Part shown: in pieces, positions 35,085 to 41,119 of the stretch
How the letters are laid out: every line of letters begins with the position of its first letter
Numbering within the stretch: the stretch's first letter is position 1
Origin: Endomicrobium sp.
GTDB lineage: Bacteria; Elusimicrobiota; Endomicrobiia; Endomicrobiales; Endomicrobiaceae
Reading direction: 5' to 3'
Assembly (NCBI GenBank): GCA_031272265.1
Contig: JAISUD010000026.1
Coordinates: forward strand, 1 to 53,952
Length of the DNA: 53,952 bases
Translations under genes and position numbers: made by a program
The notes under the pieces: generated by a model
The model's input: only the letters and a program-made list of their open reading frames with translations
Told to the model about the DNA's origin: nothing
The model's database searches: none

Positions 35085-36323
35085 TTATTCTCTGCTACCG
35101 GGCTTTACGGCAATACTTCCCGATCTGCACATAGGACAATCATCTTCTTTATAATTTTTCACTTCAAGCGTCAAAATAGAAAATTTAGGAACTCCGAAAT
35201 CAGCTTTCCCCGCACTTCTATCAACAAGAGAAACAACACCGACTACCACAGCACCTGTAGGCTCAATAGAATCTATAACTTCTTTAGCAGAAAGTCCTGT
35301 TGTTATAACATCTTCAGCCACCAAAATTTTCTCGTCAGTGTTTAATGAAAACCCTCTTCTTAAACTGACTACGCCGTCAATTCTCTCGGTAAACACTGAC
35401 CGAACACCTAAAACTTTCCCTATTTCATAGCCTATAACAATGCCTCCGATAGCAGGAGAAACGACAACATCAACTTTTATATTGTTTTCTTTGATTTTAT
35501 TTGCAAGTTCTCTGGCTAATCTTGCAGTGTCCCTGGGATTTTGCAAAATCAGAGCAGATTGAAAATATGTATCTGAATGAAGTCCACTTGTCAGTCTGAA
35601 ATGTCCGCTTAAAAGAGCTTTGTTTCTTTTAAATAACTCTTTAAGCCCAATAAGCTCGTTCTCTTCTATCTCTTCCATCTTTTTCATTTCTGACTTTTTA
35701 AGGAACATATTTTTTGTTCCCCAATATATCAAAATAAGACCCACGCCTACATTAAGCCCTTTCACAATAAAAACGGGTAAAAACGCGCCTATAAAGTGAC
35801 CGATTAAAATTACACAAGACATAAATATCGGTGTCGCCAGCATAAAACCACCTGCAAAAGCAAACGTCTCTTCCATCTTCTTCATATTACGTTTGATTAT
35901 TTCACGCGAAAATATTCCTATGGTAAACAAAATAGTAATAGGATTCGCCAGATCTAACGTCATCAAAGTAAAAAATAAAGTTTTTCCTTTAATAACGGGG
36001 TTAGCTCCTCCTATTATAACTTCTACTACAAAATATACTCCAACCGATATTAATACAAGACCGATAACAATATCAAAAAAACGCTGATATCGTTCCATTT
36101 TTTTTATAAAAGCAGATATTGAAAAAACAGCCAAGCTGACATATATAAGATCAACGACCGATAAACCTAAAATACCTACAAGCATTTGGCTGATCGGCAA
36201 AGACAATGACAAACGAAAAATCAGCATGCAAACAGGCCCTATACCGCCAAGCTGTAGCATAAGCCCGAGCTTTAATCCATCACGCAATAAACTATTACTT
36301 CTATCTTTTACATTATTCATCAT
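35085..36323 (-). CDS. pyrE: LysE-like membrane transporter domain fused to orotate phosphoribosyltransferase
   Basis: One 412-aa ORF: ~205-aa multi-TM N-terminus, then PyrE (HFRLTSGLHSDTYFQ, VLVAEDVITTG-type PRPP loop seen as ILVAEDVITTGLSAKE, CPMCRSGSIAVKPGSRE). Confidence 0.88.
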   Translation of the reverse strand: MMNNVKDRSNSLLRDGLKLGLMLQLGGIGPVCMLIFRLSLSLPISQMLVGILGLSVVDLIYVSLAVFSISAFIKKMERYQRFFDIVIGLVLISVGVYFVVEVIIGGANPVIKGKTLFFTLMTLDLANPITILFTIGIFSREIIKRNMKKMEETFAFAGGFMLATPIFMSCVILIGHFIGAFLPVFIVKGLNVGVGLILIYWGTKNMFLKKSEMKKMEEIEENELIGLKELFKRNKALLSGHFRLTSGLHSDTYFQSALILQNPRDTARLARELANKIKENNIKVDVVVSPAIGGIVIGYEIGKVLGVRSVFTERIDGVVSLRRGFSLNTDEKILVAEDVITTGLSAKEVIDSIEPTGAVVVGVVSLVDRSAGKADFGVPKFSILTLEVKNYKEDDCPMCRSGSIAVKPGSRE

Positions 36324-36327
36324 TTTA

Positions 36328-36969
36328 TCACCCTATCATTCTATTATAAATAATTCTCACAGTCTCAGTTGGATCCACAGTATCCAATATGGGTCTGCCA
36401 ACAACTATAAAATCCGCACCCTCCTTAATTGCAACTTCCGGAGTTGCCACTCTTTTTTGATCGTCGTCAACTTTTTCTAATCTGATTCCGGGAGTTATAA
36501 CGTCAAATTCTCTGCCACACTCTTTTTTTATAAGTGCTATCTCCAAAGGCGATGATATTACACCGTCTACCCCGCAAACCTTTGCAAGTTTTGCTCTTTT
36601 TATAACTTCTTTTCTATTCGCTACCTGACTCGTTAAAACCGTCACCGCCCATATTTTCGGTCTGTTTTTTACAGATGCTGCAGCCCTAAGCATATCCTCT
36701 CCCCCGACTGAATGCACAGTTAAACTAAAAACACCGAGTTCTCTGGCAGACTCAATAGCGCGCTTTACAGTAGCAGGTATATCATGGAACTTTAGATCTA
36801 AAAATATCTCTTTCCCATTGTCTTTTATCATCTTCACTATCTCTTCACCACATCGTAAAAGCAATATAGGACCTAATTTATAAACATCAACATAAGAAGC
36901 TGTTTCTTTTACAAGTTTTTCAGCTTTATTAAAGTCGCAGACGTCAAGAGCAAGTATTATTTTCTTCAT
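36328..36969 (-). CDS. pyrF: Orotidine 5'-phosphate decarboxylase
   Basis: ILALDVCDF, IFLDLKFHDIPATV. Confidence 0.96.
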   Translation of the reverse strand: MKKIILALDVCDFNKAEKLVKETASYVDVYKLGPILLLRCGEEIVKMIKDNGKEIFLDLKFHDIPATVKRAIESARELGVFSLTVHSVGGEDMLRAAASVKNRPKIWAVTVLTSQVANRKEVIKRAKLAKVCGVDGVISSPLEIALIKKECGREFDVITPGIRLEKVDDDQKRVATPEVAIKEGADFIVVGRPILDTVDPTETVRIIYNRMIG

Positions 36970-37021: not shown

Positions 37022-37933
37022 TTAAACTTTATTGACAAAGCCAATTACGTCTTTTACTGATTTTATACCTTTTTCTTCTAGTATATTTTCAACTCCATAA
37101 ATAACTTTTACTAAATTCCTAGGAGAAACTAAACTTGAGCTTCCAACGCTGACAGCTCTTGCTCCCGCAAGAAGAAATTCAATAGCATCTTCGCTTGTTG
37201 TTATACCCCCACAGCCAATAATCGGCACTTTTATACTCTGGTAAGCGTCATAAACACAACGCACTGATATAGGTTTTATACAAGACCCCGAAATACCTCC
37301 TTTTAACGTAGAAAGTTTAGGCTTAAAAGTTTTAACGTCTATAGCCATCGCCGGATAAGTATTCGCAAGCGTTACTCCGTCAGCACCCGCGTTTTGCGCT
37401 GATAAGGCAACTTCCGCGATATCCGTCGCAAGTGGAGAAAGTTTTGCAATAACCGGCACCTTTGACACGCTTTTCACTTCTCTTACTATTTCTCGCAGCA
37501 AACACAAATCGTGGCAGATTATTTTTTTCCTCAGATTAGGACAAGACAAATTAAGTTCTATAGCTGATATACCGTTTTGTCCGTTTAATATCCTTACTGT
37601 TTCAACATATTCTTTAGTTACAGCTCCCGCCACGCTTACAATTACAGGCACACCAATTTTATTTAATTTTTCAAGCGGCTCTTCAACAAAAGCTTTAACT
37701 CCTATATTTTGTAGACCCACCGTATTTAACATTCCGGACTCAACTTCGGCGATCCTAGGCTGCAAATTGCCTTCTCGCGGTTCAAAAGTAATAGTTTTCG
37801 TCACAATAGCGCCAAGTTTTTGCAAAGGAATTAAGTCTGCTAGCTCATAACCATAGCCGAAAGTTCCAGATGCTGTAAGTATAGGATTTTTCAGTTTAAT
37901 TCCCGCAAAATCTATACTTAAATCAGGTTTCAT
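37022..37933 (-). CDS. pyrD: Dihydroorotate dehydrogenase (class 1B catalytic subunit)
   Basis: NPILTASGTFGYG, ELNLSCPN, adjacent (via RM cassette) to pyrK. Confidence 0.95.
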   Translation of the reverse strand: MKPDLSIDFAGIKLKNPILTASGTFGYGYELADLIPLQKLGAIVTKTITFEPREGNLQPRIAEVESGMLNTVGLQNIGVKAFVEEPLEKLNKIGVPVIVSVAGAVTKEYVETVRILNGQNGISAIELNLSCPNLRKKIICHDLCLLREIVREVKSVSKVPVIAKLSPLATDIAEVALSAQNAGADGVTLANTYPAMAIDVKTFKPKLSTLKGGISGSCIKPISVRCVYDAYQSIKVPIIGCGGITTSEDAIEFLLAGARAVSVGSSSLVSPRNLVKVIYGVENILEEKGIKSVKDVIGFVNKV

Positions 37934-37995: not shown

Positions 37996-38814
37996 TCAAC
38001 GTTCTGAAAAAGCAAGCTGCACATAATCAACCTTGTCATTTCTAAGCTTTAACTTATAATTTTCTTTAATCACCCCATCGCTATCCAATCTGTCAATTAT
38101 CATATCATAATAGGATTTATGCAGTTCACTTGATACAAATTTTCTTCCTAATTTCTTACACAAAATAAGTTCAGAGCCTGATCCTCCAAACAATATTTGC
38201 ACCAAATCACCTTTTTTTGTTGAAGCATTTATCAACATTTCAACTAATTCCAGTGGAATTTGACAGGAATGGAAAGTTTTATCTTTAGATACATTTTTTA
38301 CCAAATCATAATACCACCACGAATAGGGCATGCGTCCTTTTGAACCGTTTATCATTCTGTGTCGTATTCTTCTATCCGTCGGATTTTGATACGGAACGAC
38401 AACCTGTTCCTTATAAAAATTATTATTTTCCGATTTTGTCGCATGTAATATTGATCTGTGCGCTGTCGTAAATTTTCTGTTAGAATGTCCTACGTTAGTA
38501 TTATAAACCCACACATAATCAAAGACTTTACAGGCGTTGTCATCTAAGTATTTCACCCTTAGATAAGCATTTTGTTTAGGATAATTTATCATAAACAAAT
38601 TGCCTCTCGGCTTTAATACTCTCATGCATTCCTGCGTCAATTCTATATACCAATTTATATACCTGTCCCATGTTTGAGTATATTTTACACCACTATAATC
38701 AATACCTACGTTATAATCCGGATCACCGTAAACCATATCCACTGAATTATCCGGAATTCTCTTCAATGTAACTAAAACATCTTCTTTAAATATTTTATTC
38801 TTAATTTTATCCAT
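37996..38814 (-). CDS. DNA methyltransferase (beta-class N6A/N4C) with atypical DPDY motif
   Basis: VYGDPDYNVGIDYSG near N-terminus; LFGGSGSELILCKKLGRKFVSSEL near C-terminus. Confidence 0.8.
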   Translation of the reverse strand: MDKIKNKIFKEDVLVTLKRIPDNSVDMVYGDPDYNVGIDYSGVKYTQTWDRYINWYIELTQECMRVLKPRGNLFMINYPKQNAYLRVKYLDDNACKVFDYVWVYNTNVGHSNRKFTTAHRSILHATKSENNNFYKEQVVVPYQNPTDRRIRHRMINGSKGRMPYSWWYYDLVKNVSKDKTFHSCQIPLELVEMLINASTKKGDLVQILFGGSGSELILCKKLGRKFVSSELHKSYYDMIIDRLDSDGVIKENYKLKLRNDKVDYVQLAFSER

Positions 38815-39628
38815 CGTTAAAGTCTTTTTTCTTCAAACAATACTCTTTCTTTTCAAGCAATTTTATACTCGTCATATCTAAAGGATTTTCAAATGTATAA
38901 TTATAAAGTCTAACTATAGAACTCCCCTTGTTTTTACGTCTAATAAGATAACAAGCAGTTAACTTTGTAATATTCAGTTCGTTCTTTTGTTTTAACTCGT
39001 AATAATATCTAAAAGGATTATACAACTGATAAAGATTAAAATTTTCCACCCAACTCTTCAGTTTAGCGTTTTTACCCTCAAAAATAGTAATATATCCTTT
39101 ATTTTCAAGCGTCAAATCTATTTCTATCTGCAAATTTCTAGATTCAAGCTTATCCTTGCCGATATAATATTCAAAAGAAACATTTCTTTTCCTCTCACTA
39201 TTATACATTTTTATAATGCTGTTATTATTAAAACTATGATCTTTGTAGAGAAAATCCCGTAAAATACCCTGATTATTTATAAGAGATAAAATACTTGATT
39301 CCGACGTAGAAAAATCATTTAAAATACTCGGCTTATATTGCCACTCAATAATTTCACAATTGTCTATCTTCTCAAAAGTATGATATATGTTATTTACGCC
39401 TCTTAAAAATTTGTGCTTACCGTTTCCTAAGTGAGCTATAAAATAGTCTTCTCCAACAACAGCATTCGGCAACTTGGACAAATCGTCTATTTTAGTCACA
39501 TCATACGGATTCGTAGTTGAACCACATTTTTCAACAACAGATTTCACTAACTCATTATCAAACTCAAAATTATCATTTATTTTACATATTTTGAATATTT
39601 CTTCTATTATTTGCTTTTTTGTTGTCAT
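38807..39628 (-). CDS. Putative type II restriction endonuclease (PD-(D/E)xK-like)
   Basis: Overlaps MTase start by 8 bp; LQIEIDLTLENKGYITIFEGKNAKLKSW resembles an E/D...EGK nuclease core. Confidence 0.5.
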   Translation of the reverse strand: MTTKKQIIEEIFKICKINDNFEFDNELVKSVVEKCGSTTNPYDVTKIDDLSKLPNAVVGEDYFIAHLGNGKHKFLRGVNNIYHTFEKIDNCEIIEWQYKPSILNDFSTSESSILSLINNQGILRDFLYKDHSFNNNSIIKMYNSERKRNVSFEYYIGKDKLESRNLQIEIDLTLENKGYITIFEGKNAKLKSWVENFNLYQLYNPFRYYYELKQKNELNITKLTACYLIRRKNKGSSIVRLYNYTFENPLDMTSIKLLEKKEYCLKKKDFNDG

Positions 39629-39646
39629 ATCTAAAACTTAATATTT

Positions 39647-40252
39647 TTAATTCAAATTTTCAAATATCTTTTTTACTAAAGACATTCTGGCATAAAAAGC
39701 TCTTCCCTCACCTTTTGTCCTTGCCTGTATCCACTTACCATCTTTGCCAGTTAAACTGGAAAACCCTTTTGTTTTAAGTTTGGATCTTATAAAATCATAA
39801 TCAGACTTAACCTCTTTAATCACTTCGTCGTTTTCAGAAAAATCAAAACTTCCAACCTTTAACAATTCCGCATTCTCAGCATTCCTTCCGTGCCACATTA
39901 CAGCACAAAAAACCATTGATTTTAGTTTTGCCCAACAATGACTCTCATAAAAACCGTGTTCCACCAGTTCTTTCTCGTTTACCATTGTTATTGCCATCGT
40001 ATATTTCGGCGTTATTTTCCCTTTTTTCAAATAAAAACTTACAGACTTCAATTCAAAATTTAACCCATTTGGAGCTTTAGAAGTATTTGTTTCCAAGCCG
40101 GCCAATTTTTCAAGAACCAGTCATCTCCATCCTTTATTTTGTTTACCAGTCTCAAAAGTTGTAATTTTATGCTTCAAAGCAAGAATTTTTAAATCTTGCC
40201 CAATGTATTTTTTTAAATTAATAATTGCATTTGTTCTAGTTAATATTTTCAT
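39647..40252 (-). pseudogene. MutH/Sau3AI-type restriction endonuclease inactivated by in-frame TGA
   Basis: From ATG 40252: MKILTRTNAIINLKKYIGQDLKILALKHKITTFETGKQNKGWR*LVLEKLAGLETNTSKAPNGLNFELKSVSF...SHCWAKLKSMVF...GKWIQARTKGEGRAFYARMS; TGA at 40121-40123; 606 nt otherwise in frame. Confidence 0.82.
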
Positions 40253-40255
40253 TTT

Positions 40256-41119
40256 TCATTTTTGTTTTCCAAACAAATATTGCTGTTCATGGCAACGATT
40301 GAACGCATACTTAAACAGACATTTTTTCCCACGATCCTCTTGCGCTAAATCCTCAAACCTTTTAATTGACAAATCCAAATACTTTTTTTCTGTATCAATA
40401 CCAATAAATTTTCTACCATTCATAAAAGAAACTATTCCAGTTGTTGAACTCCCGGTAAAAGGATCTAATATACTATCGCCCTTATTTGTGCTTGACAGGA
40501 CAATTCTTTTAAGCAAAGTCAACGGCTTTTGCGTAGGGTGTTTTCCAAATCTTTTTTCAGACGGTTTCGGTGTACCTATAGACCATACGCTTCTCATTTG
40601 CACCCCGTCTTTTTTCAAAATATCTTCTTCCCATTGTCCATTTTTCATTAAGTCATAATTAAATATATGCTTACTTTTTTTCTCTCTCCTAGCCCATATT
40701 AAAGTTTCGTGGCTTGCAGTGAAAAAACGGCAACTCAAATTGGGAGCAGCATTAGGTTTAAACCAAATTATATCATTCAATAAATGATACCCGTTAATTT
40801 CCAATGCTACGCCATATTGGTAAATAGAATGATATGTGCCGCTTATCCAAATAGTCCCATCTGGTTTTAAAACTCTCTTACACGCCCTCAACCATTTAAT
40901 ATGAAAATCCAAATTCTTTAAATAACCATTACCTAAATCCCAATCACCTTTTTTGACGCTTACTCGTTTCCCGGCGTGACATGTAAAAGAACCATCTGAC
41001 AAAAAGTAAGGAGGATCGGCAAATATCATTTCTATAGAGTTTTCTGAAATCTCTTTTAATATCTTAATACAATCGCCTTTATATAAAATAAAATTATTAT
41101 CTGAATAATACTCTTTCAT
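40256..41119 (-). CDS. DpnA-like site-specific adenine DNA methyltransferase
   Basis: MIFADPPYFLSDGSFTCHAGKRVSVKKGDWD, GTIWISGTYHSIYQYG, HPTQKP, DPFTGSSTTG. Confidence 0.9.
   Translation of the reverse strand: MKEYYSDNNFILYKGDCIKILKEISENSIEMIFADPPYFLSDGSFTCHAGKRVSVKKGDWDLGNGYLKNLDFHIKWLRACKRVLKPDGTIWISGTYHSIYQYGVALEINGYHLLNDIIWFKPNAAPNLSCRFFTASHETLIWARREKKSKHIFNYDLMKNGQWEEDILKKDGVQMRSVWSIGTPKPSEKRFGKHPTQKPLTLLKRIVLSSTNKGDSILDPFTGSSTTGIVSFMNGRKFIGIDTEKKYLDLSIKRFEDLAQEDRGKKCLFKYAFNRCHEQQYLFGKQK

What the first reader, a model, noticed from the sequence alone, without database searches (positions are those of the whole stretch)
35085..36323. In-frame fusion of a LysE-like membrane transporter to orotate phosphoribosyltransferase (PyrE)
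The 412-aa ORF has no internal stop. Residues ~1-205 are a multi-TM protein with LysE/RhtB character (GLKLGLMLQLGGIGPVCMLIFRLSLSL...GILGLSVVDLIYVSLAVFS ... VGLILIYWGTKNMF). Residues ~206-412 are a complete PyrE with PRPP loop and CPMC...KPGSR tail. PyrE is normally a soluble homodimer, so this would tether OMP synthesis to the membrane beside a putative exporter. An internal ATG (35706-35708, MFLKKSEMKK) preceded by GGGGA at ~9 nt could also produce free PyrE. pyrF ends 4 nt upstream.
Basis: partly seen in the sequence, partly recalled or inferred. Interest (0 to 1): 0.72.

Follow-up and report, generated by a model that had tools for sequence, protein, structure and literature searches.

The report
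Transporter fused to pyrimidine enzyme PyrE
In bacteria that live inside the gut protists of termites, an amino-acid-exporter-type membrane protein and the pyrimidine-making enzyme PyrE have become one protein in three separate lineages; in one group of five species both halves are kept under selection and four of them have lost any good start for making the enzyme alone, so an essential soluble enzyme appears to have become membrane-bound.

Summary
Minus-strand ORF 35085-36323 (412 aa) is a LysE-family transporter (residues 28-203) fused in frame to a complete PyrE (227-411). It is no artefact: five species of one Endomicrobiellum clade, window included, share the fusion, and two other lineages fused independently.

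History: free-living relatives have pyrD-pyrF-pyrE-purM. Endomicrobiellum acquired a lysE between pyrF and pyrE, usually as a separate gene overlapping or abutting pyrE. In the window's clade the frames merged and the old pyrE start site was lost. In the four sisters the linker has no ATG or GTG. LysE half, linker and PyrE core all show purifying selection (pN/pS 0.10-0.26 among those four). The predicted topology, six TM helices with both ends in the cytosol, would let PyrE work while tethered.

Thirteen of 43 species lack lysE and nearly all keep pyrE, so no obligatory link to pyrimidine synthesis is evident. I read it as a stop-loss fusion of neighbours, then fixed, giving a membrane-anchored bifunctional protein. 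The held papers describe no LysE-PyrE fusion.

The parts
35085..36323 (-). lysE-pyrE fusion gene, 412 aa plus stop
   Evidence: conserved in G001, G014, G028, G063
35709..36323 (-). LysE-family transporter half (residues 1-205), six predicted TM helices
   Evidence: PF01810 47.2 bits; model helices; positive-inside count; pN/pS 0.14-0.20 in sister species
35646..35708 (-). charged helical linker (residues 206-226) replacing the ancestral lysE stop and pyrE start
   Evidence: whole-codon length changes only and pN/pS 0.10-0.22 among four sister species; helix 184-233 in the model, low confidence in this part
35088..35645 (-). complete PyrE (orotate phosphoribosyltransferase), residues 227-412
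   Evidence: TIGR01367 206 bits; 4paw E 2e-43; 59 of 63 positions invariant in free PyrEs of the genus kept, the other 4 changed conservatively
35706..35708 (-). in-frame internal ATG (codon 206), possible but not conserved start of free PyrE
   Evidence: SD dG -5.5 versus -5.4 to -12.6 at real pyrE starts; ATA in the four sisters
35718..35722 (-). GGGGA, SD-like, made by the Trp-Gly codons at the end of TM6
   Evidence: the same Trp-Gly codons occur in the sister species upstream of an ATA
36328..36969 (-). pyrF, upstream neighbour, separate gene
   Evidence: operon order conserved
37022..37933 (-). pyrD (dihydroorotate dehydrogenase), same gene run
   Evidence: PF01180
33880..34842 (-). purM, downstream gene; follows pyrE directly in several free-living relatives

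Best explanation
A LysE-family exporter gene entered the pyr operon between pyrF and pyrE early in the endosymbiont genus Endomicrobiellum and usually overlapped or abutted pyrE. In the ancestor of the window's clade, small changes in the overlap joined the two reading frames and removed pyrE's own start site. The product is one bifunctional inner-membrane protein: six TM helices, with the C-terminal helix running on into PyrE on the cytosolic face. PyrE still makes OMP from orotate and PRPP, now tethered, presumably as a dimer of fusions. The transporter half still exports its substrate, probably an amino acid supplied to the protist host. The fusion most likely arose by drift in a reduced genome and was then locked in, because the essential PyrE is made mainly or only as part of it. 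Shown: conservation, one clade plus two independent fusions, lost start sites, purifying selection on both halves and the linker, compatible predicted topology. Inferred: expression as one uncut chain, both activities, the transported substrate.
For: Both domains are recognised above curated cut-offs. The fused open frame is in 5 species of one 100/100-supported clade, and in G015 and G066, whose sisters G010 and G064 have separate genes; three changes are forced by starred branches. In G001, G014, G028 and G063 the linker has no ATG or GTG, and TTG appears only inside PyrE without an SD, while all 28 free pyrE starts examined have SD dG -5.4 to -12.6. pN/pS among these four: LysE half 0.14-0.20, PyrE core 0.19-0.26, linker 0.10-0.22; LysE is constrained more than in unfused relatives (median 0.32). 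Linker length varies only by whole codons. Nearly all family invariants are kept. K+R count is 20-21 on the N/C-terminal side versus 3-5 on the other in three clade members and G066, where six helices are picked. Relatives outside the genus have pyrD-pyrF-pyrE without lysE, and the LysE profile is found only in this genus among 249 genomes of the phylum. Each fused clade genome has one PyrE match (G063 not searched for a second copy).
Against: No protein or RNA data. The sisters have ATA, preceded by a decent SD (-8 to -10.6), where the window has ATG, and G014 has ATT behind a strong SD; weak non-standard initiation cannot be excluded. Post-translational cleavage cannot be excluded. The window's own LysE half evolves faster (pN/pS 0.34-0.42), so its transport function may be relaxing there. 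C. glutamicum LysE was reported to have a periplasmic C-terminus (Vrljic 1999, from memory), which would contradict the C-in prediction. Simple hydropathy picking finds only five helices in G000 and G063. Structure model confidence is modest (pLDDT 74, linker below 50). Several fused genomes are incomplete, so a second pyrE elsewhere is not strictly excluded.
Confidence: 0.68

Rival explanations
1. Dual product: the fused frame is read through, but most working PyrE comes from internal initiation in or near the linker, giving a long transporter-PyrE form and free soluble PyrE.
For: Window ATG 35706 with GGGGA at 9 nt, SD -5.5. G066 keeps the full ancestral SD and ATG (dG -12.3) inside its fused frame. 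Ancestral gene pairs mostly relied on a start inside the lysE end.
Against: The window ATG is ATA in all four sister species, which have no ATG/GTG in the linker. SD -5.5 is about as strong as the top 10% of random positions. G015 lost the ancestral ATG and SD.
Confidence: 0.25
2. Rosetta-stone coupling: the LysE half handles a pyrimidine-pathway metabolite (for example orotate or a nucleobase for the host), and fusion couples synthesis with export.
For: In all 30 carriers lysE sits beside pyrE; three independent fusions; a related host flagellate lacks de novo nucleotide synthesis (PMC12483993).
Against: 13 of 43 species lack lysE, yet pyrE was found in 12 of these; the same paper explains nucleotide supply by digestion of the symbionts; lysE occurrence goes with ilvC (29/30 versus 7/13, p 0.002, not corrected for relatedness), which points to amino acids; known members of the LysE and RhtB families export amino acids (PMC4608589).
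Confidence: 0.1
3. Decay: the LysE half is a non-functional remnant of a dying gene, kept only as a leader of PyrE.
For: lysE is degraded or gone in relatives: stops in G018, remnants in G009, G012, G033; the window's LysE half evolves faster.
Against: Strong constraint on the LysE half in four fused sisters (pN/pS 0.14-0.20) and 32-33 of 36 invariant positions kept in the clade.
Confidence: 0.12
4. Assembly or sequencing artefact (false frameshift).
For: In G066 the join lies at poly-G and poly-A runs, the kind of place where errors occur.
Against: Five separately assembled species share the fused frame with selection over the junction.
Confidence: 0.02

Closest known systems
LysE/RhtB amino-acid exporters (PF01810; TC 2.A.75/2.A.76)
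   Same: About 200 aa, six predicted TM helices, GxGP and NP motifs, above the Pfam cut-off
   Different: Fused to an enzyme; below the cut-off of the curated homoserine/threonine exporter subfamily TIGR00949 (24.4 versus 183.95 bits); substrate unknown
PyrE, TIGR01367 (Thermus-type orotate phosphoribosyltransferase); solved relative H. pylori HP1257, 4PAW
   Same: Full length, 206 bits, PRPP motif and CPMC...KPGSR tail
   Different: No own N-terminus; preceded by a six-helix transporter and a charged linker
UMP synthase and bifunctional PyrF-PyrE proteins (NCBIfam PRK05500)
   Same: PyrE as one half of a bifunctional pyrimidine protein
   Different: There the partner is the next soluble pathway enzyme; here it is a membrane transporter (15 bits versus a 656 cut-off)
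Adjacent lysE/pyrE gene pairs of other Endomicrobiellum species
   Same: Same two genes, same operon place
   Different: Separate proteins; pyrE has its own SD and start inside or just after the lysE 3' end

Membership tests
LysE family (PF01810) | Profile match above gathering score | tested here: met
   47.2 bits versus 25.6
LysE family (PF01810) | Six TM segments | tested here: inconclusive
   Six TM helices fit the model and hydropathy in five of seven fused proteins; five picked in G000 and G063
LysE family (PF01810) | Solute export | not testable with these tools
   No assay
RhtB homoserine/threonine exporter subfamily (TIGR00949) | Score above curated cut-off | tested here: not met
   24.4 versus 183.95 bits
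PyrE, TIGR01367 | Score above curated cut-off over full length | tested here: met
   206 versus 150.25 bits, profile 2-187 of 187
PyrE, TIGR01367 | PRPP-binding motif and family invariants | tested here: met
   VAEDVITTG present; 59 of 63 invariant positions kept, 4 conservative changes
PyrE, TIGR01367 | OMP synthesis; homodimer | not testable with these tools
   No assay or complex prediction available
Bifunctional PyrF/PyrE (PRK05500) | PyrF domain in the same chain | tested here: not met
   pyrF is a separate ORF 4 nt upstream; 15 versus 656 bits

The most novel reading that the evidence does not exclude
An essential soluble pyrimidine enzyme has become an obligate membrane protein by fusion to an exporter, repeatedly in one symbiont genus, with the fusion preventing loss of the exporter; possibly the tether couples nucleotide synthesis with metabolite supply to the host.
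Probability: 0.3. Interest if true: 0.7.

Novelty: new variant of a known kind. Interest (0 to 1): 0.52.

Why it matters
PyrE is normally a soluble homodimer and a widely used genetic marker; no fusion with a transporter was found in the held literature. The locus shows all stages: gene insertion into an operon, overlap, three separate fusions, loss of the internal start, and loss of the partner in other lineages. It is therefore a natural series for asking how overlapping genes become fused proteins and whether fusion protects a dispensable gene from loss in reduced genomes. It also reveals a LysE-type exporter that, within the surveyed phylum, is restricted to the intracellular genus: a candidate exit route for amino acids to the host. 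The terms LysE and exporter do not occur in the main text of the genus's genome paper (PMC11257099).

Tried and rejected
Artefact: rejected by conservation in five assemblies. Free PyrE from ATG 35706 as the main product: not conserved in sisters, kept only as a rival. LysE as a pyrimidine exporter: weakened by absence of lysE with pyrE kept. Threonine or lysine as the substrate: thrC was not found in any of the five window-clade genomes, and lysA is nearly universal so not informative. Looking for more fusions in named genomes gave only Ca. Endomicrobiellum calonymphae with both halves. The structure model gave a good PyrE match but did not help with the linker or the LysE half, since the listed PDB hits were phosphoribosyltransferases. 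No attempt was made to find the donor of lysE outside the phylum.

Full report
What is there. The minus strand of 35085-36323 holds a 412-codon ORF with no internal stop. Its first half is a LysE-family transporter (PF01810, 47.2 bits against a cut-off of 25.6, residues 28-203). Its second half is a complete orotate phosphoribosyltransferase (TIGR01367, 206 bits against 150.25, residues 227-411), closest in the PDB to H. pylori HP1257, 4PAW. The gene lies in a run pyrB, pyrC, pyrK, four restriction-modification-type ORFs, pyrD, pyrF, lysE-pyrE, purM, purN, purB (names without a family search rest on reading the sequences). The assembly (698,591 bases, about 60% complete) has one PyrE match and only this LysE-family gene.

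Where it comes from. The genome belongs to the genus of termite-gut flagellate endosymbionts called Endomicrobiellum: the one named record with the whole fusion is Ca. Endomicrobiellum calonymphae, JAISYK010000002.1. In four of the relatives checked in the same family but outside the genus, pyrE directly follows pyrD-pyrF, with purM directly downstream in three, and without lysE. A profile of this LysE is found in 30 of 43 genomes of the genus and in none of 206 other genomes of the phylum at E 1e-8; a PF01810 search of the family finds otherwise only two genomes of one other genus. So lysE was gained at or near the base of the genus and placed between pyrF and pyrE.

From overlap to fusion. 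In 23 genomes lysE and pyrE are separate frames; in most the pyrE start, with a good SD, lies inside the 3' end of lysE in another frame, in others just after it. In seven genomes the two are one frame. A tree of PyrF+LysE+PyrE puts five of these (window, G001, G014, G028, G063) in one clade with 100/100 support, and the other two (G015, G066) each beside a species with separate genes (starred branches), so three independent fusions are needed. In G066 the old SD and ATG survive inside the fused frame (dG -12.3). In G015 the ancestral ATG has become ATA and its SD is gone. In the window's clade the ancestral start region has been replaced by a charged linker.

Is PyrE still made alone? At 28 free pyrE starts the SD energy is -5.4 to -12.6 kcal/mol. 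In G001, G014, G028 and G063 the linker has no ATG or GTG; TTG occurs only within the PyrE body and without an SD. The window species alone has three ATGs in the linker. Only the first, at 35706-35708, has an SD-like GGGGA (-5.5, about the strongest tenth of random sites); the sisters have ATA at that codon, with an SD-like site of -8 to -10.6, and G014 has an ATT behind a strong SD. Some internal initiation is therefore possible, most plausibly in the window species, but an ordinary start codon is not a conserved feature of the clade.

Is the fusion selected? Among the four sister species pN/pS is 0.14-0.20 for the LysE half, 0.19-0.26 for the PyrE core and 0.10-0.22 for the linker; unfused relatives give a median of 0.32 for LysE and 0.23 for PyrE. 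Linkers differ in length by whole codons only. Of 63 positions invariant in free PyrEs of the genus, the window keeps 59; of 36 in LysE, 33. Against the sisters, the window's own LysE half gives 0.34-0.42, so it is under weaker or different selection there.

Would it work? Hydropathy and charge give six helices with N- and C-termini inside (K+R 20-21 against 3-5 in the three clade members where six are picked and in G066). In the window protein and G063 the simple picker found five, merging the last two. The AlphaFold2 model (pLDDT 74) has the LysE helices and one long helix from TM6 through the linker (184-233), with low confidence from about residue 206 on. PyrE would then lie on the cytosolic side, where its substrates are. 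From memory, C. glutamicum LysE was reported with a periplasmic C-terminus (Vrljic 1999); if that held here the fused PyrE could not work, so topology needs a test.

What for? lysE is missing or broken in other species that keep pyrE, so PyrE does not need it. lysE occurs with ilvC in 29 of 30 carriers against 7 of 13 non-carriers (p 0.002, not corrected for shared descent or for incomplete genomes), while thrC was not found in any of the five window-clade genomes. This leans towards amino-acid export, as does the family. The genus is thought to supply amino acids to its hosts (PMC11257099). The simplest account is a stop-loss fusion of overlapping neighbours in reduced genomes, then locked in. 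Unfused lineages lost lysE several times and the five fused sister species kept it, although a lineage that lost it would no longer be recognised as fused.

Novelty. Searches of the held papers found no LysE-PyrE or other transporter-PyrE fusion. Known PyrE fusions are with PyrF. This is a new combination of two known families, hence a new variant rather than a new kind. Function of both halves in one chain is inference.

Noticed in passing
37996-41119: Two N6/N4 DNA methyltransferases, a DUF6996/DUF6997 protein and a MutH-like (possibly restriction endonuclease) ORF lie between pyrK and pyrD, splitting the pyr gene run.
   Followed up: partly
L061 (G018): lysE beside pyrE carries internal stop codons: a recent pseudogene, while pyrE is intact.
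   Followed up: partly
L009, L010, L015 (G009, G012, G033): Only the last codons of lysE (FLGAKNIFF...) remain upstream of an intact pyrE: remnants of the lost gene.
   Followed up: partly
L003, L034, L035, L036: The four sister species carry a roughly 15-residue insertion in the loop between TM3 and TM4 of the LysE half; the window species lacks it.
   Followed up: no
G057:C6:53884-54432: A PyrE match in another family of the phylum lies in an open frame of 965 codons; may be another fusion or chance.
   Followed up: no
genus-wide: This LysE-type exporter is restricted to the intracellular genus within the surveyed phylum and tends to be absent where ilvC is not found; a candidate route for amino-acid supply to the host.
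   Followed up: partly
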